Positions 1,474 to 16,010 of a stretch of 64,000 nt of DNA are shown piece after piece (within the stretch, counting starts at the first letter, position 1; the number at the start of each line of letters is the position of its first letter). Location of the stretch: positions 1 through 64,000 of the forward strand of contig CAIMVD010000100.1 in the NCBI GenBank assembly GCA_903844815.1. The letters run 5' to 3'. A model generated the notes under the pieces. That model was not told the origin of the DNA and searched no databases. It worked only from the letters and a program-made list of their open reading frames with translations. Source of the DNA: an uncultured Bacteroidota bacterium (GTDB taxonomy: Bacteria; Bacteroidota; Bacteroidia; Bacteroidales; VadinHA17). Made by a program: the position numbers and the translations under genes.

Positions 1474-2184
1474 TAGGTAAAGTTATCTTTTGGAGTTATA
1501 ATAATGTCTCTGGTTTTTTGAGATCAGAGGCCTTACATAATGACCATTTCTCAAAACAATTATTTGTATCCCAGATCAATTATCGAGGATAAAAGCATTG
1601 TTTCCTAATGCTTTAGGTTCAATATCACTTTTGATTATAATTCTTGATAGATTTATTATAAATACTCTTTTCAAGCATTATCAACGGATCCGAATTGTTT
1701 AATTCAAGCTAAATAATACTGATTGGTAAATCTGTATAATTATAAATGTTTATGGGTCTTTTTTTGTATTTTCTTTGAAGTAGGAGACACCTGATTGTAG
1801 AATTTTTTTCCGAGAAAAAATACTGAAAGGACTGGCTTTGAGATTCTGAATTCGTCAGAAAGTATTTTTTGCATAAGAATTTTGTGCGATAGGGCAATAG
1901 TTTAAACAGAATCATTTGTCCCGGGTTTTCACATTATTAGGCTTAAAAACGGAAATGCATTTGAGTTTAAAGAGATAATAAAGCAACCGATTGGGGTAAT
2001 TAATCTGGAGTTAAGGTTGGACTCGAGTGTTTTTATTAACCAATGAATTAACCAAAAAATTGAGGGTCATATCAGGTTGACCGCCTTGAAAAATGATGGA
2101 ATAATTTGTGGAGACCGGAGACCACTTTAAAAAACGGGGCGGAACCGAAAAGCCAAAAGAGTAGGAGATCTAAATCAAATATTT
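1474..2184. other. Non-coding stretch upstream of the outer membrane protein gene
   Basis: These 711 bases are A+T-rich, with stops in all frames. The only longer open frame (1709-1915, minus) has no recognisable content. The region contains copy A of a direct repeat (1711-1790) whose partner is at 12154-12233. No promoter with a good TAnnTTTG element stood out before the gene at 2185. Confidence 0.5.
1711..1790 (+). repeat. Imperfect 80-bp direct repeat, copy A (partner 12154-12233)
   Basis: Aligned without gaps by eye, this matches 12154-12233 at about 59 of 80 positions. Both copies share the core ACTGATTGGTAAATC and, exactly 55 bases from the start, TTTTGT-TTTTCTTTGA (one differing base at the dash). 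In this copy the small inverted repeat around GGTA is imperfect. The two copies lie on either side of the block 2185-12147. Confidence 0.6.
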
Positions 2185-2673
2185 ATGAAAGTCAGGATTT
2201 TATTGTTAGTTGTTTTGTCTTTTATTGTATTATCTGTAAATGCACAAAGTAATAAAGAAAAGCCATTTAAAATGGGGATCGGTTTTTCAGGGGGCCTTCC
2301 AGTTGGTGATATGTCGGAAGCCAGTCTGGCTTTGGGAGCTGATTTAAAGGTTCAATATTCGATTACTTCTGCTTTGGCCATTACCTTAAGTGCAGGTTAT
2401 GTTGATTTTCCAGTGGAGTGGCAGTTTGGTAATGCGGGATTGATTCCTGTTATGGGTGGAATACAGTATAATTTTTATAAAAAAATATACGTCAGTGCGC
2501 AGGCCGGTGTTTCATTCCCATCTCAAGGTGGTGATAGCAGTCCCTTTACTTTCGCACCTGGAATAGGTGTAAATGTATCAAACCATTTTGATCTATTACT
2601 AAAGTACCAATCTGCAACAGAAGATGGATATAATATCTCTTTTGCAGGTATTAGGGTTGGGTTAACTTTTTAA
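2185..2673 (+). CDS. Small outer-membrane beta-barrel protein
   Basis: This is a 162-residue protein with a clear signal peptide (MKVRILLLVVLSFIVLSVNAQ). The mature part has alternating hydrophobic and polar strands typical of a small OmpW/OmpX-like barrel: a glycine-rich first strand (MGIGFSGGLPVGDMS), VQYSITSALAITLSAGY, GIQYNFYKKIYVSAQAG and the C-terminal strand FAGIRVGLTF ending in Phe. It is likely an outer-membrane protein of unknown role. A 360-base gap separates it from the SPFH operon, so co-transcription is uncertain. Confidence 0.75.
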   Translation: MKVRILLLVVLSFIVLSVNAQSNKEKPFKMGIGFSGGLPVGDMSEASLALGADLKVQYSITSALAITLSAGYVDFPVEWQFGNAGLIPVMGGIQYNFYKKIYVSAQAGVSFPSQGGDSSPFTFAPGIGVNVSNHFDLLLKYQSATEDGYNISFAGIRVGLTF

Positions 2674-2781
2674 TAAATCTGACTTGGCACATGACAATAA
2701 ATAGTAACGCATTGATTGTTAGTATAATATGTCGTAAATGGCAATAAAAAGCATTCACTGGCCTGGATAAAGCATTGATAT

Positions 2782-3010
2782 TCAGTTAATTGAAACCAGA
2801 GGGCCAGTGTCTTTTTTAAAATGAGCGAAAGGGTCGAAAAAAATCAATTTTATCAGGTACGTTACCGGGGTTCTTTGGAAAGGCAACAGACGCGATAACG
2901 TCATCTGGCACATCTGGATTTGCCCGATAGATAATCCAAGCCAGTGTAGAATCAAAATGATCCAATTCTTTTCCCGATCGCACGAATCCAAAGAATACAA
3001 GCAGCCAATC
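2782..3010 (-). pseudogene. Possible frameshifted gene fragment of unknown family
   Basis: Reading the minus strand, one frame runs from about 3010 through GKELDHF, DSTLAWIIYRANPD, VPDDVIASVAFPKNPG and VPDKIDFF. At a run of seven T it would continue sensibly only after a one-base shift, as FFDPFAHFKKDTGPLVSIN ending at 2782. Removing one base from the T7 run joins the two into a fragment of roughly 75 residues that reads like real protein. An in-frame stop closes it upstream. I do not recognise the family. It could be a decayed gene end, or chance in the 360-base gap 2674-3033, which otherwise holds nothing I can identify. Confidence 0.3.
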
Positions 3011-3033
3011 ACAAATTTTAAAAAAATATTATT

Positions 3034-4311
3034 ATGGCAATAATTGATTTAGTCAGATGGTCACCTCAGGGAAATCAAACCATCTATGCATGGAAATACC
3101 AGGAAAAAAATCAGTTACCAGGCGAAGCCACCAATCTTAGTACATATACGCAGCTTATTGTGCAGGAATCGCAAGAGGCGATCTTATTCTCTAAAGGACA
3201 AATTGTTGGTAAATTTGGACCTGGTAAGCATACCCTGAACACCGAGAACTTACCAATTTTGAGAAGCTTATATGGTATTCCCTTTGGTGGTAAAAATCCT
3301 TTTACAGCAGAGGTATGGTTTGTAAATAAACTTCAACCGTATAATATTGACTGGTCAATTGACAGGATGGATATTCACGATGCTGATTATAATACAGGTA
3401 TTCCATTAGTTGCCAATGGTAGATATGGCCTTAAAATTACTGATGCAGAGCGATTTTTAATAAAAATTGTTGGAACTAAAACAACTTTTGACCAAAAGGA
3501 CCTGACAGATCAGTTTTTTGGAGAATTCTCAACAAAAACAAAGTCAACTTTAATGCAATTTATGATAAAAAACAAAATTGGATTAAAGCAAATCTCAGCA
3601 CATTTAGATAACATTTCAGACCATTTGAGATCAATTATGCTGCCATTTTGGGAAAGTATCGGTTTTGAACTAACCAAATATTATATCACGAGTATTGAAA
3701 TTGACGGTTCAACTGAATACGGGAAAAAAATACTTGACGCAGTATCAAGACAAAGCGCACAGGCGATTGGAGGCTACACCTGGCAACAGTCGCAGGCAAT
3801 GGAAATTGCAAAAGATGCTGTTGGTGGCATGTCTGAAGGTAGTGGTGGTTTATTAGGAGCCGTAGTTGCTTCAAATATGATGGGGGGATTAGGTGGTGGC
3901 GGTGGAATTATGCAACCACAATACAATCAACCAACCTTTGGATCAAATAATCAAGGACAACAAGGAAGTACAACACAACCAGTTGCACCCGTTCGTGAGG
4001 TATACTGTTCAAATTGCTCAAAAAGGTTTGCAAGCAACTTAAGATTTTGCCCGTTTTGTGGCGATGAATATGATGCTTGCCCTAAATGTGGGACGGATAA
4101 TGATAAAAACGCTAAACGATGCGTTAGTTGTGGATTTCAATTACAGCAAGGGCTAAGTTTATGTACAAATTGTAATTCACCCATAGTCCCAGGAAGTTCA
4201 TTTTGCGGCTCTTGTGGAAAACCGCAGGCTGATGATAAATGTACCCGCTGTGGTAATCAATTAGTTGCTGGAATTAAATTTTGTCCTAAATGTGGTCAAA
4301 AAAAATTATAA
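3034..4311 (+). CDS. SPFH/band-7 domain protein with C-terminal zinc ribbons (YdjI-like)
   Basis: This 425-residue protein has three parts. Residues about 20-245 form an SPFH (band 7/stomatin-prohibitin) domain of the group often annotated 'virion core protein', recognisable by QESQEAILFSKGQ, the FGPGKHTL turn and the NGRYGLKI strand. A Gly/Gln-rich linker follows. Residues 325-421 carry eight CxxC knuckles (CSNC, CPFC, CPKC, CVSC, CTNC, CGSC, CTRC, CPKC), which would build four zinc ribbons. There is no signal peptide or TM segment, so it should sit on the cytoplasmic face of the membrane. In Bacillus subtilis a similarly built protein, YdjI, works with membrane proteins YdjG/YdjH and PspA in membrane stress. 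It is first in a tightly spaced block (17 bases to the next gene), so it is probably the organising protein. Confidence 0.85.
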   Translation: MAIIDLVRWSPQGNQTIYAWKYQEKNQLPGEATNLSTYTQLIVQESQEAILFSKGQIVGKFGPGKHTLNTENLPILRSLYGIPFGGKNPFTAEVWFVNKLQPYNIDWSIDRMDIHDADYNTGIPLVANGRYGLKITDAERFLIKIVGTKTTFDQKDLTDQFFGEFSTKTKSTLMQFMIKNKIGLKQISAHLDNISDHLRSIMLPFWESIGFELTKYYITSIEIDGSTEYGKKILDAVSRQSAQAIGGYTWQQSQAMEIAKDAVGGMSEGSGGLLGAVVASNMMGGLGGGGGIMQPQYNQPTFGSNNQGQQGSTTQPVAPVREVYCSNCSKRFASNLRFCPFCGDEYDACPKCGTDNDKNAKRCVSCGFQLQQGLSLCTNCNSPIVPGSSFCGSCGKPQADDKCTRCGNQLVAGIKFCPKCGQKKL

Positions 4312-4328
4312 CATAAAAATCCAATAAA

Positions 4329-5042
4329 ATGAATGCGAAAAAAATAGTACCATTTTTGCTGTTTCTATTTGGGGAAGCATTGATAATTGTTTGCTTTCTT
4401 CATTTCGGAAGAAAACTTCCGAACGATGTATTGACACTCAATATTGTTGTATCCTCAATTATCTACGCGCTGTATTTCATTGACATAATTATTCCCTGGG
4501 TTAATTTTAAAGATAAATCGCAGAAAACTATTGGTTCTATTGGCCTAAGATGGTTCTTTACTTTCTTATATATGCTTCTTGCTATTGGGGCAATGAGATT
4601 TTTTTACACTAAAGAACCAGATATTCATATTACAACGCAATTATTAGTGCATGGAACTCTCTTATTTCTTCTTACACTCGGTTTATTTATGGCTGTTTCT
4701 GCCTCAGGTAAAGTGCAAGAGATATTTATAGCAGAGAAACAAAATCGTGACCGTATTGAGGAAATGAAAAAAACGACTAAAGAAGTTCAGTTAAAATTAG
4801 ACAAATTGAAAAATATTCCGGTTGACATTATTACAAAGATGAGTGAAATTCAAGAGAATCTAAGATATATTTCACCATCCGATAATAGTAGTGCAATAGA
4901 ATTAGAGATGAACTTCATTACTCAAATGGAAGCCGTTAACAATTGCCTTTTCGATAGTCCACTGAATTTTGAAAGAATATTGGAAAATATCAAGAATTGC
5001 GAACGCACTTATAAAGAAAGAAAACAAATTTTTTCTAACTAA
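4329..5042 (+). CDS. Four-TM membrane protein with C-terminal coiled coil, unknown function
   Basis: I do not recognise the 237-residue product. The N-terminal half has four hydrophobic segments (about residues 5-27, 33-60, 71-93 and 101-126), the first beginning IVPFLLFLFGEALIIV. From about residue 130 the chain turns charged and heptad-like (EKQNRDRIEEMKKTTKEV), ending in a cytoplasmic helical domain. No catalytic motif is visible. It lies 17 bases after the SPFH gene and 21 before the large coiled-coil gene, which suggests a membrane anchor or partner for the SPFH protein. Confidence 0.75.
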   Translation: MNAKKIVPFLLFLFGEALIIVCFLHFGRKLPNDVLTLNIVVSSIIYALYFIDIIIPWVNFKDKSQKTIGSIGLRWFFTFLYMLLAIGAMRFFYTKEPDIHITTQLLVHGTLLFLLTLGLFMAVSASGKVQEIFIAEKQNRDRIEEMKKTTKEVQLKLDKLKNIPVDIITKMSEIQENLRYISPSDNSSAIELEMNFITQMEAVNNCLFDSPLNFERILENIKNCERTYKERKQIFSN

Positions 5043-5063
5043 TGTAAATTAAAAAATGAAATC

Positions 5064-7325
5064 ATGACAGGTAAAATTTTCACTGAATCAAGTAATGTCT
5101 ACCAGGATCAGGCTAAGATATTATTTACCTATTATCAGCAAATGGCTGAAAAAATAGTTCAAGAAGAAGAGCGTTTTGAGAAAGAAATAGCAAAACTTGA
5201 AGAAGAAAAATCAGTTTTAAATCAGGATTTGGCAAAAGCCAAATTATGGAAATGGGTACTTTGTATTCTGATCATTACTTTCATTTACTTTTTAATTAAA
5301 GAAAACGGGATTGGTAAACAAATTGCTTCTCTTGACGAAAGAATCAATGTATTCAAAAAACTGCATAAGGAAATCTTCCGTGATTATAAAGTAACCAAAT
5401 TGGGCGTTGCATATGTCCCGATTGCCGATCAAATTAAATATGAGAATAAAAGCTTTATAGTTGACCATACTGGTATGGTTGATGAATCAATTGTTACACT
5501 TCAACTATCAAGGCAGAATGATCTTTTAATTGGAACAATTTCAGATTTAGAAACTTTGTCTGCAGAAGCTCCATTGGTTGAAACTTCAAATGAAATCGAA
5601 GAAATCGCCACAGAAAAATATTCTCGTTCTATGCAACAGATAAACCAGCATGATTATTTTGGCAAACTCGAACGTTCATTACGTACAATATCTTATTGCA
5701 TGGACGATTTAGATGTAACAACTGTTGCTTTACCTCTTGTGGCTAATGATAGTAATTATCTTGGATTCATTAAAGAATATTCCACTTCCAACATACTTGA
5801 AAATGCACCAGTTCTTAAGGTTTTCAATACTCAAAAATACAATGCAGAAATTGCAAAATTTCAAGAATTGAATAAATTAAAGGATTCTTTATCAAGACAT
5901 ACTGCTCAATTTGAAGATGTCTTAAAAGGTCTTATGATAACGATGGCAAATTCAGTTCAGGCAATTTCTGCATTAAAAATTGCCTCGACTGATAAAATCG
6001 TGTTTGAATCAAACAAGGTTCTTTATAAAATTTTGAAATCACCTTATAATCATTATTCGCCTGTTTTGGAAGCTTCCGAAATTGAAAGAATAAGAAATGA
6101 AAATTTTAATTATGGCGATGCTGTTCAGGATTATGTTCCATTCCAATTAAAAGATAGTTCAAGGGTAAGGTATAATTTATTATCTGATACATGGGTGGCC
6201 GAAGATGGGAGCACAACAAATTTCCCATTTGGCATACACCAAATTCATGAAGAAATTGTTGCTCCGATTGTGCAAAATTTAATGAACGAAACAAGAATTG
6301 AAAGATTGAAAATTTATAATCACATTAAAGATCAAAAAATAAGTTACTTGAATAAGTGGCATCAGGATACAGAAGATTTTTATGGGAGAAACAGATCAGA
6401 AAGTGCTGATCTAATCAATTTAATGCGAGCAAGTTTAAGAGACTATGTTGCTGCATATAATACTTTAACTTCATTAAAGAAAACAGAAGATAGCATGGCC
6501 CAATCAGGTGGCTCGCTTGATTCAACTGTGGTTACTGTTTCCGAAAATTCAGCAGAAGTATTTGCCGCTTTTGAATTGCAATCCAAAGAATTTCAAAATG
6601 TACAACTTGATTTTGAAAACTATATGGAGCGCCTTAAAGAAGACATTGATGTTAAAGCTGGTAAATTTGAACATATTGATTATTATGATGCACTTCTTCG
6701 TGATGGAAACTCAAGGGATACAGCTGTTGCAGCAGGAGGAATACATGAATTAGAGGAAAGAAGGAAACCGCTTATTACTATTAATCCATTGTTTGCAAAA
6801 GTTTCTGAAATACCACCTACCCCAAGTATTGAAGATCTTACTTATGAGCATATTTCTTTAAATCTTCCAATTATTGCTCAAAATGCGCTTAAAGAACTTG
6901 AAGAAGATTTAGTTTCTGAGCCAATTATAATTGTTAAAGAAATTACCAGTAATAATAATGTTGACAATTCTACCAACACCGAAAAAGCCGTGGATGACAA
7001 TATTAATAGTTTGAGTTCTGATGAAGAAGATATTATTACTTATGATGATGATGATGATATACCAGATGAGGAAGAAGTAAATTCCGAAGAAAATTTTGAA
7101 GCCAATGATATTGACAGTGATGAAGAAACAGAAAACGATGATGAGGGATATACGGAAGCGGAGCTTGAGAAACTATCAGATTCTGAGATAAGAGATATAC
7201 TAAGTAAATGGGGACTAGAGCCTTTGGAAGTATTTGACAGAAATGAAGCCATATCAACAATTCTTGAAGCGCAAGAAAATGCAAACGAGGATGAAGATGA
7301 GGATGCAAATAAGACCAATAATTAA
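5064..7325 (+). CDS. Large coiled-coil, single-TM protein with acidic tail and SAP/HeH-like motif
   Basis: This 753-residue protein of unknown function starts with a strong coiled coil (about residues 28-60, EEERFEKEIAKLEEEKS). One TM helix follows (about 62-78, WKWVLCILIITFIYFLI). A long mostly helical body extends to about residue 630. From about 650 the chain is extremely acidic, with runs of Asp and Glu. Embedded in that tail (about 697-737) is a predicted helix-turn-helix segment, LSDSEIRDILSKWGLEP followed by RNEAISTILEAQ. It resembles SAP/HeH/Rho-N-type small helical domains that bind nucleic acid or act as adaptors. The protein could link the membrane to a cytoplasmic partner. It is in the same block as its neighbours (21-base gaps both sides). 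Confidence 0.75.
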   Translation: MTGKIFTESSNVYQDQAKILFTYYQQMAEKIVQEEERFEKEIAKLEEEKSVLNQDLAKAKLWKWVLCILIITFIYFLIKENGIGKQIASLDERINVFKKLHKEIFRDYKVTKLGVAYVPIADQIKYENKSFIVDHTGMVDESIVTLQLSRQNDLLIGTISDLETLSAEAPLVETSNEIEEIATEKYSRSMQQINQHDYFGKLERSLRTISYCMDDLDVTTVALPLVANDSNYLGFIKEYSTSNILENAPVLKVFNTQKYNAEIAKFQELNKLKDSLSRHTAQFEDVLKGLMITMANSVQAISALKIASTDKIVFESNKVLYKILKSPYNHYSPVLEASEIERIRNENFNYGDAVQDYVPFQLKDSSRVRYNLLSDTWVAEDGSTTNFPFGIHQIHEEIVAPIVQNLMNETRIERLKIYNHIKDQKISYLNKWHQDTEDFYGRNRSESADLINLMRASLRDYVAAYNTLTSLKKTEDSMAQSGGSLDSTVVTVSENSAEVFAAFELQSKEFQNVQLDFENYMERLKEDIDVKAGKFEHIDYYDALLRDGNSRDTAVAAGGIHELEERRKPLITINPLFAKVSEIPPTPSIEDLTYEHISLNLPIIAQNALKELEEDLVSEPIIIVKEITSNNNVDNSTNTEKAVDDNINSLSSDEEDIITYDDDDDIPDEEEVNSEENFEANDIDSDEETENDDEGYTEAELEKLSDSEIRDILSKWGLEPLEVFDRNEAISTILEAQENANEDEDEDANKTNN

Positions 7326-7346
7326 ACTCATTTAAATCTTAAATTT

Positions 7347-8261
7347 ATGGCAACATTTAATTATACAGTAGATACTCAGCCTATGGCTGAAGAAATAAGT
7401 AGGGTGTCGCACCATGTGAACGCTACTACTGGCGCTGTGGTTGCAATGCAAACGGCTGTAATTCTAGCCGAGGGCAAAGCTGCTGACCACGTTTGCAACA
7501 ATGTAAATAAGGGTTTTTACTCTCTAATACGCTCTCAGATTTCGCAGAAACTTGCAAAGCTACAAAGTGAGGTTGATTCTAATCTCATGCAGCTGGTTCA
7601 ACAAAAAAACGCTTTGCTTGGCATTAAGACCCGTATGCAACGAGATTACAACATGATTTCAAGCAGGTATATAAAGTTATTTAATGGTCTTAATACAAAT
7701 TTAAAGAACCGAGTTTTTGAACTTGATAAACCAACTATTGACTTTGCTTGCAAAGAAATTGATAAAGTTACAAACAGAACAAAGTACCTTACTGCAACCG
7801 TTCCGATTACTCAATTGGAATCAATTACTGCAAGTCAGAGAATCATCGCATCGAATATCAAACTGAGAGGTTTGAATGTGATAAATTCAATGAGATGGTT
7901 CATTCACGAAATGAATATGCAGAAAAAACTGACTGACCAGATTTTAATAACTGATGCCAGTTCAATAGAATCTGCAACATCATTTATACCTATTGTAATT
8001 TATGAGTGCAACAGAGATAAATCAGACCAGAAGAATATCGAAATAATTGTTTCGGATATTGAGATAGATAATCTTACCAGGTCTGCAATAAAGAACAAGG
8101 CATATACAGAATTCGCTCAACTTAACTGGTCACAAAAAGGGGTTCCAATACAAGAAATAAAAAGCGAGTTCAGTAAATTGATTTCATCTTCTGCTAAGTC
8201 TTCAAGAATCAAAGATTTAGCAATGCAATTATTTCAGGCTAATAATTATCAAACTACTTAA
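7347..8261 (+). CDS. Unknown protein, paralogue of the next gene (copy 1)
   Basis: The 304-residue protein has no signal peptide and no TM helix. It is clearly related to the product of 8273-9340. Shared elements in the same order are a TTGAVVAMQTA / LTGAVVATEVA segment, GFYSLIRSQISQ / GFFSYIRSEISQ, a long helix, SSRYIKLFNGLN / SGRYVKIFDDLN, and the near-identical NRVFELDKP. The N-terminal part looks helical and amphipathic, so oligomerisation is plausible. I know no characterised member. It follows the large TM protein by 21 bases and its paralogue starts 11 bases after it. Confidence 0.7.
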   Translation: MATFNYTVDTQPMAEEISRVSHHVNATTGAVVAMQTAVILAEGKAADHVCNNVNKGFYSLIRSQISQKLAKLQSEVDSNLMQLVQQKNALLGIKTRMQRDYNMISSRYIKLFNGLNTNLKNRVFELDKPTIDFACKEIDKVTNRTKYLTATVPITQLESITASQRIIASNIKLRGLNVINSMRWFIHEMNMQKKLTDQILITDASSIESATSFIPIVIYECNRDKSDQKNIEIIVSDIEIDNLTRSAIKNKAYTEFAQLNWSQKGVPIQEIKSEFSKLISSSAKSSRIKDLAMQLFQANNYQTT

Positions 8262-8272
8262 ATGATAAAGAT

Positions 8273-9340
8273 ATGAGTTATACCAGAAATTATCGGGAAA
8301 CTATAACAGTGAGTGGTTCAAAAACCGTTTCTGTTTCATATCCTGCCTCACAAAATGGCGGTAGCACGTCAACCACAGTTTATTATACAGAAGAAGTTCC
8401 GGTTAGTGTAAATATCCATGTCGACACAAATCCATTTGATATAAGTGTAAACCATGTAAATGGCAATGTTGACTTACTTACAGGTGCGGTTGTAGCTACT
8501 GAGGTAGCGGAAATTGCTGCAAAAGCAACGAATGCTATTAAAGTTGGCGACACGATTGTTAATGGTTTTTTTAGCTATATCCGTTCAGAGATTAGTCAGC
8601 AAATTGCAGAACTTTCTCAAAACATTGATGCTCATCTAATGCATTTAAAGGAATTGGCACAGTCTTGTCTTTCTAAGAAAAAACAAATGGAAGGTGATTA
8701 TCTCAGAATTTCAGGACGTTATGTGAAAATATTTGATGATCTAAATAATGAATTGTCAAACAGGGTTTTTGAATTAGATAAACCTGCATTTGTTTTTAAG
8801 AAAGAAACGGACAATCAAAAAATAAGAACATCATCCAACGATTTGGTTAATACTGTTACAATAGGCGGAATAGAAAGCAGCGCTTTATATTCAAAAATTG
8901 GTGCATCAATTGCAAAAAAAAGAGCATTAGACACGATTAATAAAGCTAAAGTGTTTCTCTGGCAGCAAAGGAAGCTTAATACAACAATTCAGCAAAGCAT
9001 GCTTAACGAAAGTGTACCATGCTCAATCTATGCTCCATGCTGTTATGTTGAGACAAATAATGCCAACAATCAGATTGATAAGACTATTTACACTACTGAT
9101 TTCTTATCTGTGCTTAAAGATAAGAGCCGGAAGAATGAAATTGTCGAGCAATTTTCATCAAACTCTATTGCATGGAGCAAGCCATCACAGGACACACAAA
9201 AGAATATAAGTTTGTATTTCAATACAGAACTTAATAATGCTTCAACTGTAAATGATCAACATTCTTTACGTGTTCGAGAGATGATTCAGGAATTAGCAAG
9301 TAAAGCCACAATTAGCGTAATTAATTTTCAACAAATTTAA
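8273..9340 (+). CDS. Unknown protein, paralogue of the previous gene (copy 2)
   Basis: The 355-residue protein aligns with the 304-residue upstream product over most of its length, with the NRVFELDKP signature conserved. It differs by an extra N-terminal segment of about 60 residues rich in Ser, Thr, Tyr and Val (for example YRETITVSGSKTVSVSYPA), which looks like beta-strands. Two copies side by side suggest a tandem duplication followed by specialisation, perhaps into a hetero-oligomer. No enzyme motif is visible. It lies 11 bases after copy 1 and 12 before the bactofilin-like gene. Confidence 0.7.
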   Translation: MSYTRNYRETITVSGSKTVSVSYPASQNGGSTSTTVYYTEEVPVSVNIHVDTNPFDISVNHVNGNVDLLTGAVVATEVAEIAAKATNAIKVGDTIVNGFFSYIRSEISQQIAELSQNIDAHLMHLKELAQSCLSKKKQMEGDYLRISGRYVKIFDDLNNELSNRVFELDKPAFVFKKETDNQKIRTSSNDLVNTVTIGGIESSALYSKIGASIAKKRALDTINKAKVFLWQQRKLNTTIQQSMLNESVPCSIYAPCCYVETNNANNQIDKTIYTTDFLSVLKDKSRKNEIVEQFSSNSIAWSKPSQDTQKNISLYFNTELNNASTVNDQHSLRVREMIQELASKATISVINFQQI

Positions 9341-9352
9341 AAATATAAAAAA

Positions 9353-10327
9353 ATGAATGAATTAAAAGAACTTCGTTTTAATGAAACCAATATCCAACTT
9401 AAAGACAATTTGGTAAAAGGGTCAATACTTCCGGAAAAGATAGCCGAACTTGACAGGACAATAACAATACAGGGCAATTCTATTATTGAAGGTGCTGTAT
9501 ATGCTCATAAATTGGAAATTCAGCAAGGTGATTCAGAGATTAAAGGAGCTGTATTTACTCACCTTGAAATGTATGTGAATAGTGAAGCAAAAGGCAATAT
9601 CTCATTTAAAAAGAGTGTAGGTTCTGCTAACTCAATTGTATCCAGAGCATTAAATTGTAATCTAATGTTTTATTCAGACATAAATGCAAAAAGTGTGACT
9701 TTGTACAATGCTTTTGTCGCAGGTAGCATATATGCCGATGAAATTATTTTGCAAAATTGTGTGGTAATAGGTGGTGTGTTTGCAACACAAAACATTGATA
9801 TTACTAATTCTATCATTGGTACATTTAATAGTCCATCTGTTAAAGCTGCACAACAAGTATGGTTATTACTTCCAAGTGCATTTTCAATTGAAAAGATTAT
9901 CACAATACCTGGTACAAAGTTTTTCAATCTTAGTTTGGCCGATCTGGGTTCCTTATTTAAAGGCAGTAAGCAGTCAATTAATTCTGGCAAAATAGAAATG
10001 AACCTTAATACTGACGAAGTTAGAACAACACTTACAAATGAAGAAACGCAAAAATCCTTACGTAGCTATACTGTTATTGGTAAAGTATTAGCAGCGGATT
10101 TATTAGATTTTGACAAATTTCAAAATCACTTTTTACTGGCCGCTGCAAGTCTGGGCTCACAATTGCTTAAAAATTATGACCTCGGAGTAAATGATAAGGG
10201 CGAACCAGTTACTCTAACCTTCGATAAAATCAGGAATTTCTTTTTTAACATACTCCTTGGTAAAATTGAGATTCAAGAAATCAATGGGAAGTTTGATATT
10301 TCTGATATTACAGGTAAATTTAATTAA
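9353..10327 (+). CDS. Bactofilin-like beta-helix protein
   Basis: The 324-residue protein has, from about residue 25 to 170, short repeating strands with a hydrophobic residue every second position: IQGNSIIEGAVYAHKLEIQ, SEIKGAVFTHLEM, FVAGSIYADEIILQ, CVVIGGVFATQNIDI. This is the pattern of polymer-forming bactofilins and related right-handed beta-helices, in which each turn has an I-x-G-x-[VI] core. The C-terminal 150 residues are not recognisable and contain a predicted helical segment (DLLDFDKFQNHFLLAAASLG). Bactofilins form cytoskeletal filaments on the inner membrane and often guide cell-wall enzymes. That would fit the L,D-transpeptidase in this block. Assignment as a bactofilin relative is inferred from pattern only. 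Confidence 0.6.
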   Translation: MNELKELRFNETNIQLKDNLVKGSILPEKIAELDRTITIQGNSIIEGAVYAHKLEIQQGDSEIKGAVFTHLEMYVNSEAKGNISFKKSVGSANSIVSRALNCNLMFYSDINAKSVTLYNAFVAGSIYADEIILQNCVVIGGVFATQNIDITNSIIGTFNSPSVKAAQQVWLLLPSAFSIEKIITIPGTKFFNLSLADLGSLFKGSKQSINSGKIEMNLNTDEVRTTLTNEETQKSLRSYTVIGKVLAADLLDFDKFQNHFLLAAASLGSQLLKNYDLGVNDKGEPVTLTFDKIRNFFFNILLGKIEIQEINGKFDISDITGKFN

Positions 10328-10504
10328 TGACTTTATGTTTTAAATAACATACACCCCTTAAAAATAGGAGAAGAAAATAATTGCATTCATGTGGATCCGA
10401 TTACTCGCTGGATAAGGTATTCATTATAATTATTTGATCTTTTCATTATTATGATATTGAATTTGTTGTAGTTTTTTAGCTATAGTGTATAAAATCCTAT
10501 ATTT

Positions 10505-11542
10505 ATGATAAAATCAGTTTGTTCAAAATGTGGAAGCGAAAAAAGTTTCAATGATGATAAATTAGGAAAGAAATTTCGATGCCCTAATTGTGGAAATGTT
10601 GTACAAATCATAGAAACTAAACCAAGTTTTAACAACGCAAAGGAAGTAAAACCGGAACCTAATAGTGGAAATATTGGACAAATCTTAGAAAGCAACTCAA
10701 ACGACACATCAGCTAAGTTGCCAACTCATTCAAATGATTTGGTCAAGGCGCCACTCCAAAAGTCTAGTGTACAAACCCATACAAGCTTTCCTTTGAAACA
10801 GGTAATTGTTGCTGCATCACTTTTAATTATTACAGGAGGCTTTCTAATCTATCTTTTGTTGTTAAAACCCTATTTGGCAGATAAAAATGCAAAAAGGTAT
10901 TATACATATATAGATAATTTGATTATGCGCTCATCGCAGGTTGCAGGAGTAGATTATAATATTCTGCAGAAATTGAATTATGGAACTGAACTTCTGGCAT
11001 ATAACCAAAATCCTGAAAATGAGGAATGGCTTTTTGTTAAAGCCAATGGAAAAAAGGGATATATTTCGTCACAATTCATATTGAATAAACGTGATTTTTA
11101 TGAACTTAATGGAATTTTTGGTGATGTAGAATCAAAAGAAGCTATTTTAACTGCAAAATGCAGAAAAGCTTTGCTTAACTATTTTCAGGATAGTATAAAT
11201 AGGAATATTATGGGTAAAATTGATCCTCAAATTCAACTTGAGATCTATGGTACCCAAAAAAACAGAGAAACCTGGCAGGTTTTTTCAAGGGGAAAGGACA
11301 TCAATCCTAATACAGTTGCATACCCTAGAATTACTAATCCTAATTCAAAATTTAGTGATTTTGCTTGTATTATAAAGAATGTATCTACAAATAAAAGGAA
11401 ACTATTGCTTTTCTCCTTTTCTGAGGAAGGAGTTCCGAGCCTGGCTTATGAATTAGATGCCCCTGATGAAGGATACATCTTATCTATTATAAGGCCAGTA
11501 AGAAATGGAAATAATCAGCCCGTTGTTAAATATACAAATTAA
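10505..11542 (+). CDS. Zinc-ribbon, single-TM, SH3-like domain protein
   Basis: The 345-residue protein begins with a short zinc ribbon (CSKCGSEKSF then RCPNCGNVVQ, residues about 5-35) of the MJ0042 type. A polar linker and one TM helix (about residues 100-122, VIVAASLLIITGGFLIYLLLL) follow. Next comes an SH3-like module (about 150-195, LNYGTELLAY, EEWLFVKANGKKGYISSQFI) that would lie outside the cytoplasm. The C-terminal part is unassigned. SH3b modules often bind peptidoglycan, and the following gene, 5 bases away, is an L,D-transpeptidase, so the two probably act together at the wall. A 177-base gap before this gene may hold its own promoter. Confidence 0.7.
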   Translation: MIKSVCSKCGSEKSFNDDKLGKKFRCPNCGNVVQIIETKPSFNNAKEVKPEPNSGNIGQILESNSNDTSAKLPTHSNDLVKAPLQKSSVQTHTSFPLKQVIVAASLLIITGGFLIYLLLLKPYLADKNAKRYYTYIDNLIMRSSQVAGVDYNILQKLNYGTELLAYNQNPENEEWLFVKANGKKGYISSQFILNKRDFYELNGIFGDVESKEAILTAKCRKALLNYFQDSINRNIMGKIDPQIQLEIYGTQKNRETWQVFSRGKDINPNTVAYPRITNPNSKFSDFACIIKNVSTNKRKLLLFSFSEEGVPSLAYELDAPDEGYILSIIRPVRNGNNQPVVKYTN

Positions 11543-11547
11543 TTGAA

Positions 11548-12147
11548 ATGTGGATTAAAAAGAGAGATCTTTTACTCTGGGTATTAATATTAATTCCGTA
11601 TCTCTGCCTCGCTCCGGCATATTGGTATTATTTATTGCGATTGAAACAAATTGAGAATTCTTCATTTTTAATTATTGATAAATCAAATTTTACACTTTCA
11701 CATTATAATTTTAAAGGCGAGCTGCTACAGAAATCAAAAATAGCAATAGGAAAAAATCCCGGGAATAAATTAGAAATTGATGATTTGAAAACACCGGAAG
11801 GTATTTTCAGAATTGCTGGATTTGAGAATTCCTCTGCTTGGTCACACGATTTTGAATTGGATTCATTTGGAAAGATAGAAGGTGCATATGGCCCATTTTT
11901 TATACGTCTTGATGTACCAGGTCAGAAGGGTATTGGTATTCACGGAACTTATGATGATAGTTCAATTGGGTCAAGAGCTTCAGAGGGATGCATCAGAATG
12001 TATAATAAGGACATCGTAAAACTGGTTAAACATTTGAAAACTGCTTCGATTGTAGTTATCATTCCTGGTATGGATGATCAGAAAGTAGATTTTGAGTTGG
12101 TAAATAAAACGAAGAATACCCGGTCAGAAAAAGTAAACACAAAGTAA
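11548..12147 (+). CDS. Membrane-anchored L,D-transpeptidase (YkuD domain)
   Basis: The 199-residue protein has an N-terminal TM anchor (about residues 8-28) and a YkuD domain. The signature is complete: His132 in GIGIHGTYD, then Ser145, Gly147, Cys148 and Arg150 in SEGCIRM. The Cys is the nucleophile that forms 3-3 peptidoglycan cross-links or attaches proteins to peptidoglycan. At 199 residues it is compact, with no LysM or other binding module, so a partner may supply wall targeting; the SH3-like protein encoded 5 bases upstream is the obvious candidate. It is the last gene of the block. Confidence 0.88.
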   Translation: MWIKKRDLLLWVLILIPYLCLAPAYWYYLLRLKQIENSSFLIIDKSNFTLSHYNFKGELLQKSKIAIGKNPGNKLEIDDLKTPEGIFRIAGFENSSAWSHDFELDSFGKIEGAYGPFFIRLDVPGQKGIGIHGTYDDSSIGSRASEGCIRMYNKDIVKLVKHLKTASIVVIIPGMDDQKVDFELVNKTKNTRSEKVNTK

Positions 12148-12153
12148 TCAGAG

Positions 12154-12233
12154 AAATACTACTGATTGGTAAATCAGTAGAAATCCAACTTTTCAAGGTT
12201 CGGATTTTGTCTTTTCTTTGATATTGGAACAAC
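12154..12233 (+). repeat. Imperfect 80-bp direct repeat, copy B (partner 1711-1790)
   Basis: This copy begins 7 bases after the L,D-transpeptidase stop codon. It aligns without gaps to 1711-1790 (about 59 of 80 identical by eye). Unlike copy A, its hairpin core is perfect (see 12159-12180). The two copies bracket the 2.2-12.1 kb block. Confidence 0.6.
12159..12180 (+). terminator. Hairpin after the eight-gene block
   Basis: CTACTGATT and AATCAGTAG form a perfect 9-bp stem around a GGTA loop, 11 bases after the stop codon of the L,D-transpeptidase gene. The position suits transcription termination or mRNA 3'-end protection. No uridine run follows directly, so it may not work as an intrinsic terminator by itself. 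Confidence 0.45.
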
Positions 12234-12360
12234 GGATCGTATATTCTCTTTAAAATGAAGTTTTGTTGATTCCCGATGAAAATTCGTTCAAAAACTTAGG
12301 CTGTTATGTTAGCAAGACTATCTAATACATTGTCTTTTAAAATCTATAAACAATAATAAA

Positions 12361-14145
12361 ATGAAGAATAAAATTTCTTTCCTGTTATGTCTCCTGACAT
12401 TTTTATCTTTAAATACATTTAGTCAAACTGCATTGCAATGGGCTAGAAACTATAATGATCCTATTAATCAGACTGATCGCATAATTGATGCAGATTTTGA
12501 TCCTCTGACAGGAAATACATATGTTACAGGTTCAAGCGACAGCACCAATGGTATTAATATAGTTACAATTAAATATTCGTCTGACGGTCAAATAGTGTGG
12601 CGTAAGCGATTTGCAGGTCCGCAATTTCAGGATTCTCCTAATGCTATAAGATTTGACCAGGTAAATAATGCTGTTTATGTAACTGGTAAAAGCAAGGGGA
12701 GTACAACTAACTTTGATTGGATAACAATTCGTTATAACGCATTGACTGGGGCAATGGTTTGGTCAATGAGCTACAATGGGACACAAAATAGTAACGATGA
12801 AGCAATAGATATAGATATTGATGCTACCGGAAATATTTATGTAATTGGGAATGTTTTAGAAAATTGTGCCGACCATTTAACTACCAAGACAATCAAATAC
12901 AATCCGGAAGGAGTAGTCTCATGGAGCAAGTCAATTACAAGTACTCTTTGTTCTTATGATGAATTGGCATACAAAGTCACGGTAAACGGGAACAAAGCAG
13001 TAGTGATCTATAATGAAAGAAGCGGACAGTCATATACAGCACATGTTTTAGGATATTTCATATCAAATGGCGCGTGTACAAGTACTTTATGTTCAACATT
13101 TGCACTTGGTACTTCATCCTCTACGCCAGGTTATTATTCAATAGATTTTGACGGATTAGGGAATGTATATATCGCTGGATATGGTTTATCTGTGGCAAAG
13201 TTAAATACTGATGTTTATAGTTTAGTCTGGAATAAAAGTTATATAGGAACCAGGTCAGGATGGGCTAATAACATTGTTGTTGATCAGAACAACTACAATG
13301 TATATGTAACAGGTTATTTGCAAACTTCTGTTGGGAATAATGATATTTATACAATTAAATATAATTCATCAGGAGATAGTATATGGACAAAAAAATATTA
13401 TGGAGCAGGTAATGGAGACGACACGGGATTATTAATAGCAAAGGACAATTTAACCAATCCGAATATTTATGTAACAGGTTATACGACTCAGAGTAATGGA
13501 AAGAAGCTGATCACTACCATAAAATATAATAATAGCGGAAGTCCATCATGGTCAGTAAATTATGGTTGCAGCGCTAATGACAATATTCCCGTAAGAATGT
13601 TCAGGGACCCGAGCGATATGATTTATATAGCCGGAACAAATAGTTGCAATAACACTTATGAGGACTTTTTAACTCTGAAATATTGTACGACTGCTCCTGC
13701 CACGCCGGTAATTTCTCAGAATGGTGATGTTTTACAATCCAGTGCGGCAACAGGATATCAATGGTTTGATCAGAATGGTTTGATAGCCGGGGCAACCGGT
13801 CAGTATTATACTGTGATCTCAAATGGTAACTACTACGTTAAAACTTCGAATGGATGCTATTCAGAGCCTTCAAACACAATAAGTTTTGTCACCGGAATAG
13901 AAGAATTTGTAAATAACCGGATTATTAAAGTTTACCCAAATCCCGTTTCTAACGAATTAACCCTTGAGATCAAAGATTGTGCTGAAGAGACGGATTTCGA
14001 AATTATTAATATGACAGGCACAATAGTTTATAAGGGGAAATTTGCTGAAAGGACTGTCGTGAATACATCTAATTTTAGTCCAGGTATTTATTATATTAAA
14101 ATTGGAAATGGAAGGGCGTTTGAATTTAAGAAGATTGTTAAATAG
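12361..14145 (+). CDS. Secreted SBBP-like beta-propeller protein with T9SS C-terminal domain
   Basis: The 594-residue protein has a signal peptide (MKNKISFLLCLLTFLSLNTFSQ). A series of repeats of the form NxYVTGxS...TIKYNxxGxxxW (about residues 50-450) corresponds to SBBP/beta-propeller blades. A short Ig-like stretch (VISQNGDVLQS, YQWFDQNG) comes next, then a type A T9SS sorting domain (about residues 523-594, IKVYPNPVSNELTLEI to PGIYYIKI). It should cross the outer membrane by the T9SS and stay at the cell surface or be released. The ligand is unknown. It is separated from the upstream block by about 210 bases and is probably transcribed independently. Confidence 0.85.
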   Translation: MKNKISFLLCLLTFLSLNTFSQTALQWARNYNDPINQTDRIIDADFDPLTGNTYVTGSSDSTNGINIVTIKYSSDGQIVWRKRFAGPQFQDSPNAIRFDQVNNAVYVTGKSKGSTTNFDWITIRYNALTGAMVWSMSYNGTQNSNDEAIDIDIDATGNIYVIGNVLENCADHLTTKTIKYNPEGVVSWSKSITSTLCSYDELAYKVTVNGNKAVVIYNERSGQSYTAHVLGYFISNGACTSTLCSTFALGTSSSTPGYYSIDFDGLGNVYIAGYGLSVAKLNTDVYSLVWNKSYIGTRSGWANNIVVDQNNYNVYVTGYLQTSVGNNDIYTIKYNSSGDSIWTKKYYGAGNGDDTGLLIAKDNLTNPNIYVTGYTTQSNGKKLITTIKYNNSGSPSWSVNYGCSANDNIPVRMFRDPSDMIYIAGTNSCNNTYEDFLTLKYCTTAPATPVISQNGDVLQSSAATGYQWFDQNGLIAGATGQYYTVISNGNYYVKTSNGCYSEPSNTISFVTGIEEFVNNRIIKVYPNPVSNELTLEIKDCAEETDFEIINMTGTIVYKGKFAERTVVNTSNFSPGIYYIKIGNGRAFEFKKIVK

Positions 14146-14183
14146 CTTATCTTGCTTCTGAAATCTGTAATAAAACTGCAACA

Positions 14184-14218
14184 CCTGCCTTTGAATTTTA
14201 TGGCACATCAAAGGCAGG
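14184..14218 (+). terminator. Terminator-like hairpin after the T9SS cargo gene
   Basis: CCTGCCTTTGA and TCAAAGGCAGG form a perfect 11-bp stem with a 13-base loop, 39 bases after the stop codon. Only a weak pyrimidine tract follows. It is the strongest hairpin in the gap 14146-14360. Confidence 0.55.
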
Positions 14219-14360
14219 CTTACCCTTCAATTGGATTGAAATAAAAAATAGTGTAGATTGTGATCTGTTCAGTTGATCCTGGCATACCATGCATAAGACC
14301 AGATAACATATGCAATTTCAGGAATTAATATTTTTTGACGAACCAATAACTCCCCATAAA

Positions 14361-16010
14361 ATGAAAAGACAATATTTGTTAGTTGCCTTTTTGCTGGCGT
14401 TTTTACCATCCTCTTTTGGTCAGAACAAAGCCACAGCTATACCATCGACTTATGATCGAAGTTCGCTTACATTGATTCACATTAACAACATTGAATCAAA
14501 AGTCAAAGAACAGTTTTTAAACGTAAAAGTTCCGGACAAATACTTTGAAAACAAAATTGACCTTAAATCGATTCAACTATCACAAAACACCGGGAATAAA
14601 AATTTTGACCCAAATAGTATCACTGAAATACTCAACAGGGAGAAAATTGGCGCTAAAATAATCTCATACTGGTACTCCCGGCAGGGAGATGGAACAATGA
14701 GCGCTGACAGGTTTCTTGAAAGAGGAATGTATAATGCCACAGATGCAGATGTATTAGAAGCCAAAGGAACAAAACGTGGCGTCGAGGCGATCAAAGATTA
14801 CGGTGATAAACTTATAAGTAATAGTTTTGCCGTTGTCCTTGATTATTACGCTCTTAGGGAAATCAACGAAGGAAATAGCAGGGGTTGGTATTCTGATGTT
14901 AAGTTGTATTTGTTCAAGGTTGTTTTCGATGATGCAACTCAGGCAAAATTGTATAATGAGTGTTGGATTTATACAGACGATTCTGCTGAAACAAAAGCTA
15001 AGAAGAAGACAGCTTTTGACCAGATGAATTTCAGAATGGAATATGTCTCCCAGGCATCTTCACCTGTCTCTGAACAGGATTTCATAAATCCACCGGCAAA
15101 TACAATTACATTAACGCAGGATCAACTTTTGGAAGGTGTTTTACAGACAGGACTGGATAATTGTCTTAATAAAGTTGAGAATAATGTCGAGGCAATGAAA
15201 GTAAAAGCTTCAATTTACCAGACTAATCCACCAAGGGCAAAAATCGGTGAAAAGGAAGGCTTGAAAGTCGATCAGCTTTATTTTGCATATGAATATGTAT
15301 ATAAAGAAAAAACCAAAAGCACAAAAGCTCTCAGAAGAAGTGAATTAAGGGCAAAAAATGTCGTAAATAATTCAGGTATCGCGAGTGGTTCATCAGGTAT
15401 GTCCACCTTTTACCAGGTGGCTGCCGGTCATCTCCATACTGGGTTTACGCTTCAGCAGCATAATGAATTAGGAATTGGAGTATATTTTGGAAGTGAATTT
15501 GGGAATATGGGTGGTCTTTCAGCACGTATTGAGAAAAGAACGGGAGGTATCCCTGCAATGTACATATTTATTGAGGGAAGCATGCAGAATAAAATTTACT
15601 ACTCTATGCCAGATAAACAAAGTTATCTGCTGTCGTCTCAAAAGGTTTATTTTATTCGTGGTGATCTGGGAGTTGCGAAAGGTATACGTCTTATCAGGAC
15701 ATTGGAACTGGCTCCATATGTCAGTATTGGATATGAGGCAGCCAAAAGTAATGATTGGAAAAACAATGCCCAATTCAATGGAGACATGTTAGGATCGTTG
15801 TATTGGAAATATGGCGCTAATTTATCACTTAACCTCAGATACAATATTCAATTAGTCGGTGGGGTCGGAGGGTACTTATTCCTCTACGCGGAAGATAGTA
15901 AAGGTGAGATAACAATTGGAGGACAAAAAGCTAATTACGATTATTTTTTCAGGGACAGAGCGTGGGGTGAAGCCTTTTCAACCTATGCCGGAGTGAGGGT
16001 ACAATTTTAA
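14361..16010 (+). CDS. Secreted protein with C-terminal beta-barrel-like region, unknown function
   Basis: The 549-residue product starts at the ATG at 14361, giving a signal peptide MKRQYLLVAFLLAFLPSSFGQ; the frame is open 17 codons further upstream. Residues about 60-330 form an unrecognised domain with the segments EILNREKIGAKIISYWYSRQ and DKLISNSFAVVLDYYALREI. The last 190 residues alternate like outer-membrane strands (HTGFTLQQHNELGIGVYFGSEF, LNLRYNIQLVGGVGGYLFLY) and end in TYAGVRVQF, with the terminal Phe typical of barrel proteins. It is likely exported to the outer membrane. Confidence 0.7.
   Translation: MKRQYLLVAFLLAFLPSSFGQNKATAIPSTYDRSSLTLIHINNIESKVKEQFLNVKVPDKYFENKIDLKSIQLSQNTGNKNFDPNSITEILNREKIGAKIISYWYSRQGDGTMSADRFLERGMYNATDADVLEAKGTKRGVEAIKDYGDKLISNSFAVVLDYYALREINEGNSRGWYSDVKLYLFKVVFDDATQAKLYNECWIYTDDSAETKAKKKTAFDQMNFRMEYVSQASSPVSEQDFINPPANTITLTQDQLLEGVLQTGLDNCLNKVENNVEAMKVKASIYQTNPPRAKIGEKEGLKVDQLYFAYEYVYKEKTKSTKALRRSELRAKNVVNNSGIASGSSGMSTFYQVAAGHLHTGFTLQQHNELGIGVYFGSEFGNMGGLSARIEKRTGGIPAMYIFIEGSMQNKIYYSMPDKQSYLLSSQKVYFIRGDLGVAKGIRLIRTLELAPYVSIGYEAAKSNDWKNNAQFNGDMLGSLYWKYGANLSLNLRYNIQLVGGVGGYLFLYAEDSKGEITIGGQKANYDYFFRDRAWGEAFSTYAGVRVQF

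What the first reader, a model, noticed from the sequence alone, without database searches (positions are those of the whole stretch)
3034..12147. Candidate undescribed envelope-scaffold system: SPFH-zinc ribbon, membrane coiled coils, bactofilin-like protein and L,D-transpeptidase
Eight co-directional genes, most with 5-21 base gaps (one 177-base gap), encode an SPFH/zinc-ribbon organiser, a four-TM coiled-coil protein, a large one-TM protein with an acidic tail, two paralogues, a bactofilin-like beta-helix protein, a zinc-ribbon/TM/SH3-like protein and an L,D-transpeptidase. SPFH proteins of this kind work with membrane proteins in Bacillus membrane stress (YdjFGHI), and bactofilins guide wall enzymes. 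I know no described system with this set. Inference: a cytoplasmic scaffold connected through membrane proteins to local wall remodelling or stress response.
Basis: partly seen in the sequence, partly recalled or inferred. Interest (0 to 1): 0.8.

Follow-up and report, generated by a model that had tools for sequence, protein, structure and literature searches.

The report
Mobile six-gene SPFH–bactofilin-like scaffold cassette
Six neighbouring genes of a Bacteroidota genome form a self-contained cassette, found sporadically in other genomes and in one case as the cargo of an integrated mobile element, that probably builds a membrane-attached protein scaffold protecting the cell, while the cell-wall enzyme next to it appears to be an unrelated neighbour.

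Summary
The reading frames are as described, but the conserved unit is six genes, not eight. SPFH/zinc-ribbon, 4-TM, large P3, paralogues P4/P5 and a bactofilin-like gene keep one order in 10 complete loci; four more are cut by contig ends, and one variant lacks the first two genes. The zinc-ribbon/TM/SH3 gene and the L,D-transpeptidase after the 177-base gap were not found in the DNA held around the cassette in 14 other genomes; 9 of these hold 1.9 kb or more behind it.

The cassette is accessory and moves. Where one genome has a 7.85-kb six-gene block, a syntenic relative has 167 bp. In a Lutibacter MAG it is the cargo of a 13.7-kb element bounded by a 15-bp repeat of a tRNA-Ser 3' end; a close copy sits in a genome of another order.

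P3's tail is hypervariable: LEM-like, zinc ribbons or acidic. Restriction or BREX genes lie near 4 of 13 loci.

Best reading: a non-enzymatic, membrane-attached scaffold protecting against phage or membrane injury. That role is inferred.

The parts
3034..4311 (+). SPFH/Band_7_1 domain plus C-terminal zinc ribbons (425 aa); no hydrophobic segment
   Evidence: Band_7_1 119 bits, Zn_Ribbon_1 61 bits, DZR 58 bits; 57-81% identical in 13 other cassette genomes, one cut at the contig end; hydropathy
4329..5042 (+). TM4: four hydrophobic segments, then a C-terminal half without any; least conserved core gene
   Evidence: four segments in 13 of 14 members, five in one; 18 of 232 columns invariant among 10; no family above cut-off
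5064..7325 (+). P3: large protein, conserved body (about 1-615), usually with one hydrophobic segment near 56-78
   Evidence: 64-83% identical in 14 other cassette genomes, one of them only the first 71 residues; no Pfam or NCBIfam match; segment below threshold in L012, L018, L019
6981..7325 (+). P3 hypervariable acidic tail; in the window it ends in a LEM/SAP-like stretch (my reading of the letters, no profile match above cut-off)
   Evidence: tails align poorly; L010/L011 body dN 0.022, tail dN 0.72; LEM 33.7 bits in L016, zinc ribbons in L009 and L014
7347..8261 (+). P4: mainly helical protein with a small C-terminal part
   Evidence: AF2 mean pLDDT 66, pTM 0.22, helix 11-126 with residues 71-110 at 86-91; no family above cut-off
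8273..9340 (+). P5: paralogue of P4 with an extra N-terminal Ser/Thr/Gly-rich stretch
   Evidence: 33% identical to window P4; no family above cut-off
9353..10327 (+). BAC: bactofilin-like beta-strand domain (about 36-170) plus a second part of uncertain fold
   Evidence: Pfam Bactofilin at E up to 0.1 in 8 of 8 members scanned, best 2.3e-4, window protein below cut-off; AF2 strands at pLDDT about 90 from 41 to 140; 64-91% identical in 10 other genomes
10505..11542 (+). Adjacent, judged NOT part: zinc ribbon - TM - SH3-like protein
   Evidence: no hit in the DNA held around the cassette in 14 other genomes, 9 of them with 1.9 kb or more behind it; SH3_3 22 bits, below cut-off
11548..12147 (+). 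Adjacent, judged NOT part: YkuD L,D-transpeptidase with an N-terminal hydrophobic segment
   Evidence: YkuD 62 bits; no hit in the same DNA; segment

Best explanation
A mobile accessory cassette of six genes encodes one cytoplasmic complex held at the inner membrane. The SPFH/zinc-ribbon protein (no membrane segment of its own) oligomerises and is held at the membrane by the 4-TM protein, as YdjI is by YdjG/YdjH in Bacillus. P3, P4 and P5 are long helical parts and the bactofilin-like protein is a beta-helix polymer; together they form a scaffold. P3's hypervariable tail, carrying zinc ribbons, LEM-like motifs or an acidic stretch, is the arm that contacts a changing target. The complex protects the cell when its membrane is attacked, by phage or by other injury, which is why it travels on mobile DNA and is kept under purifying selection. 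Shown: the six-gene unit, its order, its gain or loss as a block, purifying selection, the domain anatomy and the variable tail. Inferred: complex formation, membrane placement, polymerisation and the protective role.
For: Unit: same order in 10 complete six-gene loci, 4 cut loci consistent; no homologue of TM4, P3, P4, P5 or BAC around 20 other SPFH genes. Mobility: block present or absent between syntenic relatives, 7853 against 167 bases. 13.7-kb element with integrase, HTH_17 and DUF5906 genes, bounded by a 15-bp repeat of the tRNA-Ser 3' end, cargo = the cassette. L010 and L011 cassettes have dS 0.32-0.99 although L010's genome falls in the order of G457 (record title 'Bacteroidales') and L011 is titled Lutibacter, Flavobacteriales; window against L010 is 1.26 to saturated. 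Patchy: P3 in 0 of 35 same-genus genomes, 0 of 394 others drawn from the phylum, 6 of 198 in G457's order. Selection: dN/dS 0.025-0.137 per gene for L010-L011. Membrane: TM4 segments; YdjI needs YdjG/H (PMC8581546 passages). Scaffold: beta-strand model and bactofilin matches, helical P4. Protective role: restriction or BREX genes near 4 of 13 loci.
Against: No experiment. In 9 of 13 flanked loci I found no defence gene that I credit; the three later loci (L115, L117, L122) sit among genes that read as housekeeping. L019 has no SPFH or TM4 on its 13-kb contig, so these two are not always beside the other four; its genome was not held. P3's hydrophobic segment is below threshold in 3 of 14. No recognised enzymatic domain in the six, unusual for defence. 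The element boundary is shown in one locus of 15. No match in IMG/VR by four pattern scans.
Confidence: 0.5

Rival explanations
1. A dedicated anti-phage system: the scaffold sits at the membrane, P3's variable tail recognises a phage component or activity, and the assembled complex blocks infection or disrupts the membrane.
For: BrxA 6 kb behind L013 with further genes that read as BREX, a type IIG-like 1650-aa helicase/nuclease 0.6 kb behind L010, a type I methyltransferase 7.4 kb before L018 and a type II/III methyltransferase fragment 7.5 kb before L012; cargo of an integrated element; fast tail; among 15 comparison SPFH loci no restriction or BREX family in the 25 of 54 PADLOC families shown.
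Against: 4 of 13 is modest and post hoc; best PADLOC match of the eight window proteins E 0.015, to a zinc-ribbon stretch of P7; no recognised enzyme or toxin domain; not found in plasmid records (P3, P4, P5) or phage records (P5 only).
Confidence: 0.3
2. A resident-type envelope-stress complex like Bacillus YdjGHI-PspA, that happens to be patchily inherited; it senses or repairs membrane damage and has nothing to do with phage.
For: SPFH plus zinc ribbon plus membrane partners is the YdjI arrangement (PMC11237479 passages); flanks read as housekeeping genes in several loci.
Against: No PspA match among the ten window genes scanned in Pfam; the cassette moves and was not found in any of 35 same-genus genomes, some of them incomplete, unlike a core stress response; P3-P5 and BAC have no counterpart there that I know of.
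Confidence: 0.3
3. The first reader's eight-gene wall-remodelling system, in which the scaffold directs the L,D-transpeptidase through the SH3-like protein.
For: Co-direction and a 5-base gap between the last two genes; low G+C also in the last two genes; different wall- or envelope-linked genes near 4 other cassettes; PMC10945521, seen only as a listing with title and abstract start: a bactofilin cytoskeleton works with an M23 endopeptidase.
Against: Neither gene occurs in the DNA held around 14 other cassettes; 177-base gap at the edge; complete cassettes exist whose listed flanking genes include no wall enzyme that I recognise by eye (L115, L117, L122).
Confidence: 0.07
4. A structural organelle or compartment builder (scaffold for a storage, vesicle or nucleoid-tethering structure) carried as a niche trait.
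For: Only structural or adaptor folds are recognised; LEM-like and zinc-ribbon tails could bind nucleic acid or protein clients.
Against: No client enzyme or cargo gene was seen to be conserved with it.
Confidence: 0.15

Closest known systems
Bacillus subtilis pspA-ydjGHI operon (YdjI SPFH/zinc-finger protein)
   Same: SPFH domain with C-terminal zinc-binding region, no membrane segment of its own, membrane-protein partners in the same operon
   Different: no PspA among the ten window genes scanned; five other partner proteins instead; gained or lost as a block in Bacteroidota
Other SPFH/zinc-ribbon loci in Bacteroidota (24 of 295 other genomes of one phylum draw match over the SPFH part; 17 of these and three from carrier genomes fetched)
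   Same: related SPFH domain
   Different: SPFH 23-38% identical to the window's in 19 of 20 loci, no tblastn hit in the 20th; no TM4, P3, P4, P5 or BAC; in at least 10 of the 20 a gene that reads as zinc-ribbon lies next to it, by eye
Bactofilins (Pfam PF04519)
   Same: beta-strand-rich N-terminal half, weak profile match in 8 of 8
   Different: below the Pfam cut-off in the window protein; 324 aa with an extra C-terminal part of uncertain fold
Band-7 operons linked to PspA and chaperones (PMC11237479)
   Same: band-7 proteins proposed as assembly helpers at the membrane (passages)
   Different: the words 'bactofilin' and 'YdjI' do not occur in that paper's main text (it names the B. subtilis operon ydjFGHL); gene set differs

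Membership tests
SPFH/Band_7_1 family | profile match above the curated cut-off | tested here: met
   119.2 bits, cut-off 24
YdjGHI-PspA envelope-stress system | SPFH protein with zinc region and no own membrane segment | tested here: met
YdjGHI-PspA envelope-stress system | pspA in the operon | tested here: not met
   no PspA match among the ten window genes scanned; flanking genes of the other loci were read by eye, not searched for PspA
YdjGHI-PspA envelope-stress system | membrane recruitment by the operon's TM proteins | not testable with these tools
   TM4 has four hydrophobic segments; recruitment needs an experiment
Bactofilin (PF04519) | profile match above the curated cut-off | tested here: not met
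   window protein 19 bits against 27.9; all 8 members match with E at most 0.1, best 2.3e-4, bit scores of the other seven not shown
Bactofilin (PF04519) | right-handed beta-helix core | tested here: inconclusive
   AF2 gives many short strands with pLDDT about 90 from 41 to 140, but fold comparison was switched off
Bactofilin (PF04519) | polymerises | not testable with these tools
   experiment needed
Known anti-phage defence system | match to a PADLOC model | tested here: not met
   no match better than E 0.015 for any of the eight window proteins
Known anti-phage defence system | location beside defence genes | tested here: inconclusive
   4 of 13 flanked loci; comparison loci none among the 25 of 54 families shown
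Mobile genetic element cargo | integrase and att repeats around the unit | tested here: met
   met in L011; att repeats were not searched for in the other loci
Eight-gene scaffold/L,D-transpeptidase system | last two genes conserved with the first six | tested here: not met
   0 of 14 other cassette genomes within the DNA held; 9 of them hold 1.9 kb or more behind the cassette

The most novel reading that the evidence does not exclude
A new class of mobile immunity or membrane-protection system with no recognised enzyme: an SPFH-organised, membrane-attached cytoskeletal lattice (bactofilin-like polymer plus two helical paralogues) read out by a large protein whose tail is exchanged between zinc ribbons, LEM-like modules and acidic stretches to follow a changing phage or stress target.
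Probability: 0.28. Interest if true: 0.88.

Novelty: new variant of a known kind. Interest (0 to 1): 0.62.

Why it matters
It would be a transferable prokaryotic module built on SPFH and bactofilin-like parts. No paper of the searched library holds both words 'SPFH' and 'bactofilin'. Five of the six window proteins match no Pfam or NCBIfam family above cut-off; one of the five, BAC, matches bactofilin below it, and the other four (TM4, P3, P4, P5) have only weak matches or none. A natural presence/absence pair and a bounded element make its function directly testable by adding or removing one seven-kilobase block.

Tried and rejected
Eight-gene system: rejected as a fixed set after searching the last two genes in the DNA held around the other cassettes. 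Phage or plasmid origin: tblastn of P3, P4 and P5 in plasmids and of P5 in phages, pattern scans of IMG/VR for P3, BAC, P4/P5 and SPFH, and for the L011 primase-like and integrase genes, gave nothing; blastn of 3.9 kb in E. coli genomes gave nothing. Pattern scans find only relatives that keep the patterns, so absence there is weak. Solved structures: no meaningful match for BAC, P4/P5 or P3; SPFH only zinc-ribbon chains at E 0.008 or worse; TM4 was not searched. Promoters: sigma-70-like sites no more than in shuffles (48 against mean 43.0, sd 5.6); a Bacteroidota-type promoter pattern (recalled, from no call) was found whole in 2 of 14 upstream regions and its downstream half alone in 4 more, not in the window, so transcription start is open. 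A membrane segment in P3 as a defining part: rejected (below threshold in 3 of 14; only L018 lacks the stretch altogether).

Defence enrichment: 4 of 10 against 0 of 15 comparison loci gives one-sided Fisher 0.017, and 4 of 13 gives 0.035. These are post hoc. Only the first 25 of 71, 54 and 50 families were shown. The 15 comparison loci were picked by me from 20. The 174-aa L012 methyltransferase fragment was added by me below the size filter. Flank lengths differ. Hits were assigned to genes only for 10 chosen proteins; PDC-S01 and PDC-M37B hits were not assigned. I discounted as housekeeping look-alikes the RecQ hits of L019 and the UvrD/GajB hits of the later loci, and in the comparison set the kinase (PD-T4-6, mad6, C3a189), HerA, MotB/ZorB, MkoA and PDC-S03 hits. 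The comparison ORFs are noisy in G+C-rich genomes. The envelope-gene recurrence has no control. My recollection that proteins like P5 are widespread outside Bacteroidota was not confirmed by any search; the search meant for another phylum (centred on a contig titled Ignavibacteriae) shares genome handles with the Lutibacter order draw, so it was a second draw from the same held phylum.


Full report
Observation. Families above cut-off are SPFH Band_7_1 and zinc ribbons in the first protein and YkuD in the last; bactofilin and SH3_3 are sub-threshold; TM4, P3, P4 and P5 have no Pfam or NCBIfam family above cut-off, weak PHROGs matches (best E 3e-6, to P3's tail, function unknown) and no PADLOC match better than E 0.025. 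The window lies in a 6.37-Mb draft genome of 411 contigs. Naming: SPFH 3034, TM4 4329, P3 5064, P4 7347, P5 8273, BAC 9353, P7 10505, YkuD 11548.

Distribution. P3 was found in 1 of 59 other relatives, a genome of another family (81% identical over 1-621), and in none of the 35 same-genus genomes among them, some of which are incomplete; in 0 of 394 other genomes drawn from the phylum; in 6 of 198 genomes of the order of G457, four of them already known carriers; in 1 of 196 of the order of the Lutibacter genome, that genome itself; in 1 of 9 and 2 of 8 genomes of the families of two new carriers. The P4/P5 profile gave 0 of 394 in the phylum draw and only the known carrier among 148 genomes drawn around L015's genome. 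A scan of 84,980 species genomes by two short patterns gave 11 loci.

The unit. L009 and L017 are the same genome. Counting it once, 15 genomes carry the cassette, the window included. Ten have all six genes in the same order and strand: window, L009, L010, L011, L013, L016, L018, L115, L117 and L122. Four are cut by a contig end and agree as far as they go: L012, L014, L015, L020 (tblastn also sees the start of P4 in L015). One, L019, has P3-P4-P5-BAC behind RecJ- and RecQ-like genes and no SPFH or TM4 on its 13-kb contig; its genome is not held. P7 and YkuD gave no tblastn hit at 1e-3 in 27 fetched stretches (443.5 kb) around the 14 other cassettes. Directly behind the cassette nine genomes hold 1.9-8.3 kb, L016 holds 354 bases, and four contigs end before BAC; the rest of these genomes was not searched for the two genes. 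Twenty other SPFH loci, 17 of the 24 non-carrier genomes that matched over the SPFH part and three second SPFH genes of carriers, gave no hit for TM4, P3, P4, P5 or BAC; 19 of the 20 gave an SPFH hit of 23-38% identity. So this SPFH subfamily and its five partners form one unit, and the last two genes of the finding are most likely neighbours.

Mobility. L117 (genome G816) and its relative G992 (L133) share both flanks at 76-84% DNA identity; between them L117 has 7853 bases (8103-15955) in which the six genes are the only ones I recognise, and L133 has 167. This shows gain or loss as a block; direction is not shown. In L011 (Lutibacter MAG) a 15-bp direct repeat at 1709-1723 and 15414-15428 reproduces the 3' end of a tRNA-Ser gene (15416-15501). 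Between the copies lie a phage-type integrase (1821-3113), an HTH_17 gene, a DUF5906 gene, two genes without a family above cut-off and the cassette. This is one locus of 15; repeats were not sought in the others. The L010 and L011 cassettes match at 87-90% DNA identity only over the cassette, 285 bases upstream and 42 downstream, with P3's tail unaligned. L010's genome G454 falls in the order of G457, whose record title says Bacteroidales; L011 is titled Lutibacter, order Flavobacteriales. Yet their dS is 0.32-0.99, while the window against L010 is 1.26 to saturated. The window's order is probably that of G457: the genome sizes listed for 'same order' recur in the same series. In the window the six genes have G+C 0.339 against 0.409 for the rest, but low G+C continues to about 18000.

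Anatomy and selection. Among the ten complete cassettes the share of invariant columns is SPFH 0.42, TM4 0.08, P3 0.46, P4 0.34, P5 0.24, BAC 0.45; dN/dS (Nei-Gojobori, own script) for L010-L011 is 0.025-0.137 per gene. P3's body has dN 0.022 and dS 0.62 in that pair, its tail dN 0.72 and dS 1.88 over 104 codons of doubtful alignment, so the tail evolves very fast or has been replaced. Nine of 14 tails were scanned in Pfam: zinc ribbons over cut-off in L009 and L014, sub-threshold in L015; a LEM match of 33.7 bits (cut-off 24, no single stretch passing alone) in L016; nothing in L011, L115, L117, L122 and nothing over cut-off in the window. The LEM/SAP likeness in the window, L011 and L014 is my reading of the alignment. 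TM4 has four hydrophobic segments in 13 of 14 members and five in one; P3 has one in 11 of 14. The BAC model (8 sequences) has mean pLDDT 64.8, pTM 0.70, with many strands at about 90 from 41 to 140 and a poor second half; the P4 model (17 sequences) has mean pLDDT 65.8, pTM 0.22 and a long helix.

Surroundings. Defence-type genes within the flanks held: a 1650-aa protein with Mrr_cat_2, ResIII and 13 HA stretches, close to a PADLOC type IIG model, 0.6 kb behind L010; BrxA 6 kb behind L013, followed on the contig by genes that I read as brxB, brxC, pglX, pglZ and brxL (only BrxA was matched by a model) and a TIR protein; a type I methyltransferase 7.4 kb before L018, with genes I read as hsdR and hsdS beyond; a type II/III methyltransferase fragment 7.5 kb before L012. 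That is 4 of 13 loci; the window and L015 are left out. Ten window genes were in the scan, but hits were not broken down by gene, and I recognise no defence gene among them beyond a toxin-antitoxin-like pair. The three later loci gave only UvrD-type hits among the 25 of 50 families shown. Fifteen comparison SPFH loci gave no restriction or BREX family among the 25 of 54 shown; they did give kinase, HerA, MotB and other hits that I discounted. Envelope-linked genes, not orthologous to each other, lie near 5 cassettes: P7/YkuD in the window; zinc ribbon with YARHG, an SH3 protein and an M23 peptidase in L017; YARHG and a borderline SPOR match in L013; zinc ribbon plus TonB_C in L014; FHA plus TonB_C, on the opposite strand, in L018.

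Mechanism. The SPFH protein has no membrane segment; in Bacillus the like protein YdjI needs the TM proteins YdjG and YdjH for membrane foci, and PspA foci need YdjI (PMC8581546, passages seen). By analogy TM4, and often P3, hold this SPFH protein at the membrane. BAC would polymerise as bactofilins do (recalled), P4/P5 would be rod-like linkers, and P3's tail would be the part that meets a changing partner. No recognised enzyme is present among the six, so the complex most likely acts by organising or sealing membrane or by holding a target. Mobility, patchiness, a variable arm and part of the neighbourhood point to protection; whether against phage or other membrane injury is open, and I give equal weight to both.

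Literature. 'SPFH' with 'bactofilin' gave 0 papers; with 'anti-phage' and with 'BREX' one listing each, irrelevant by title; 'SPFH domain', 'Bacteroides' and 'operon' gave three listings, judged by title and abstract start only. Other searches were YdjI with SPFH and zinc ribbon, YdjI with YdjG, SPFH with double zinc ribbon and SPFH with biological conflict or zinc ribbon. PMC11237479 (passages) links band-7 proteins with PspA and does not contain 'bactofilin'; PMC7159879 (passages) has SPFH only in its reference list. PMC10945521 was seen only as a listing with abstract start. Preprints and most subscription papers are not held, so a description there cannot be excluded.

Verdict.

Noticed in passing
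window 4001-18000: Low-G+C stretch (0.32-0.37 per 2 kb against 0.37-0.48 further on) that includes most of the cassette, P7/YkuD and the next genes; may be one acquired island.
   Followed up: partly
window 16905-17458: Small gene pair that looks like an antitoxin and a ParE/RelE-type toxin, by eye only.
   Followed up: no
window 46319-48481: 720-aa frame that reads as an NAD-dependent epimerase fused to a DegT-type aminotransferase, inside a polysaccharide export/glycosyltransferase cluster (32205-53704), by eye only.
   Followed up: no
window 21702-23641 and 61593-63445: Two pairs of frames that read as electron-transfer flavoprotein subunits in one window, by eye only.
   Followed up: no
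L010:15775-20727: 1650-aa protein with Mrr_cat_2, ResIII helicase and 13 HA stretches close behind a cassette.
   Followed up: partly
L013:15247-18954: Three genes with a similar N-terminal stretch and different ends (YARHG; none found; borderline SPOR) between cassette and BrxA.
   Followed up: partly
L104:3998-6391: 797-aa protein that reads as tubulin-like, beside a vWA-like and a protease-like gene, upstream of the L009/L017 cassette; by eye only.
   Followed up: no
L018:10001-12190: P3 in which the hydrophobic stretch is missing and replaced by charged residues, a natural test of membrane attachment.
   Followed up: partly
L010 and L011 cassettes: dS differs between genes of the same pair (0.32 in SPFH and BAC, 0.89 in P4, 0.99 in P5), which suggests mosaic recombination inside the cassette.
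   Followed up: no
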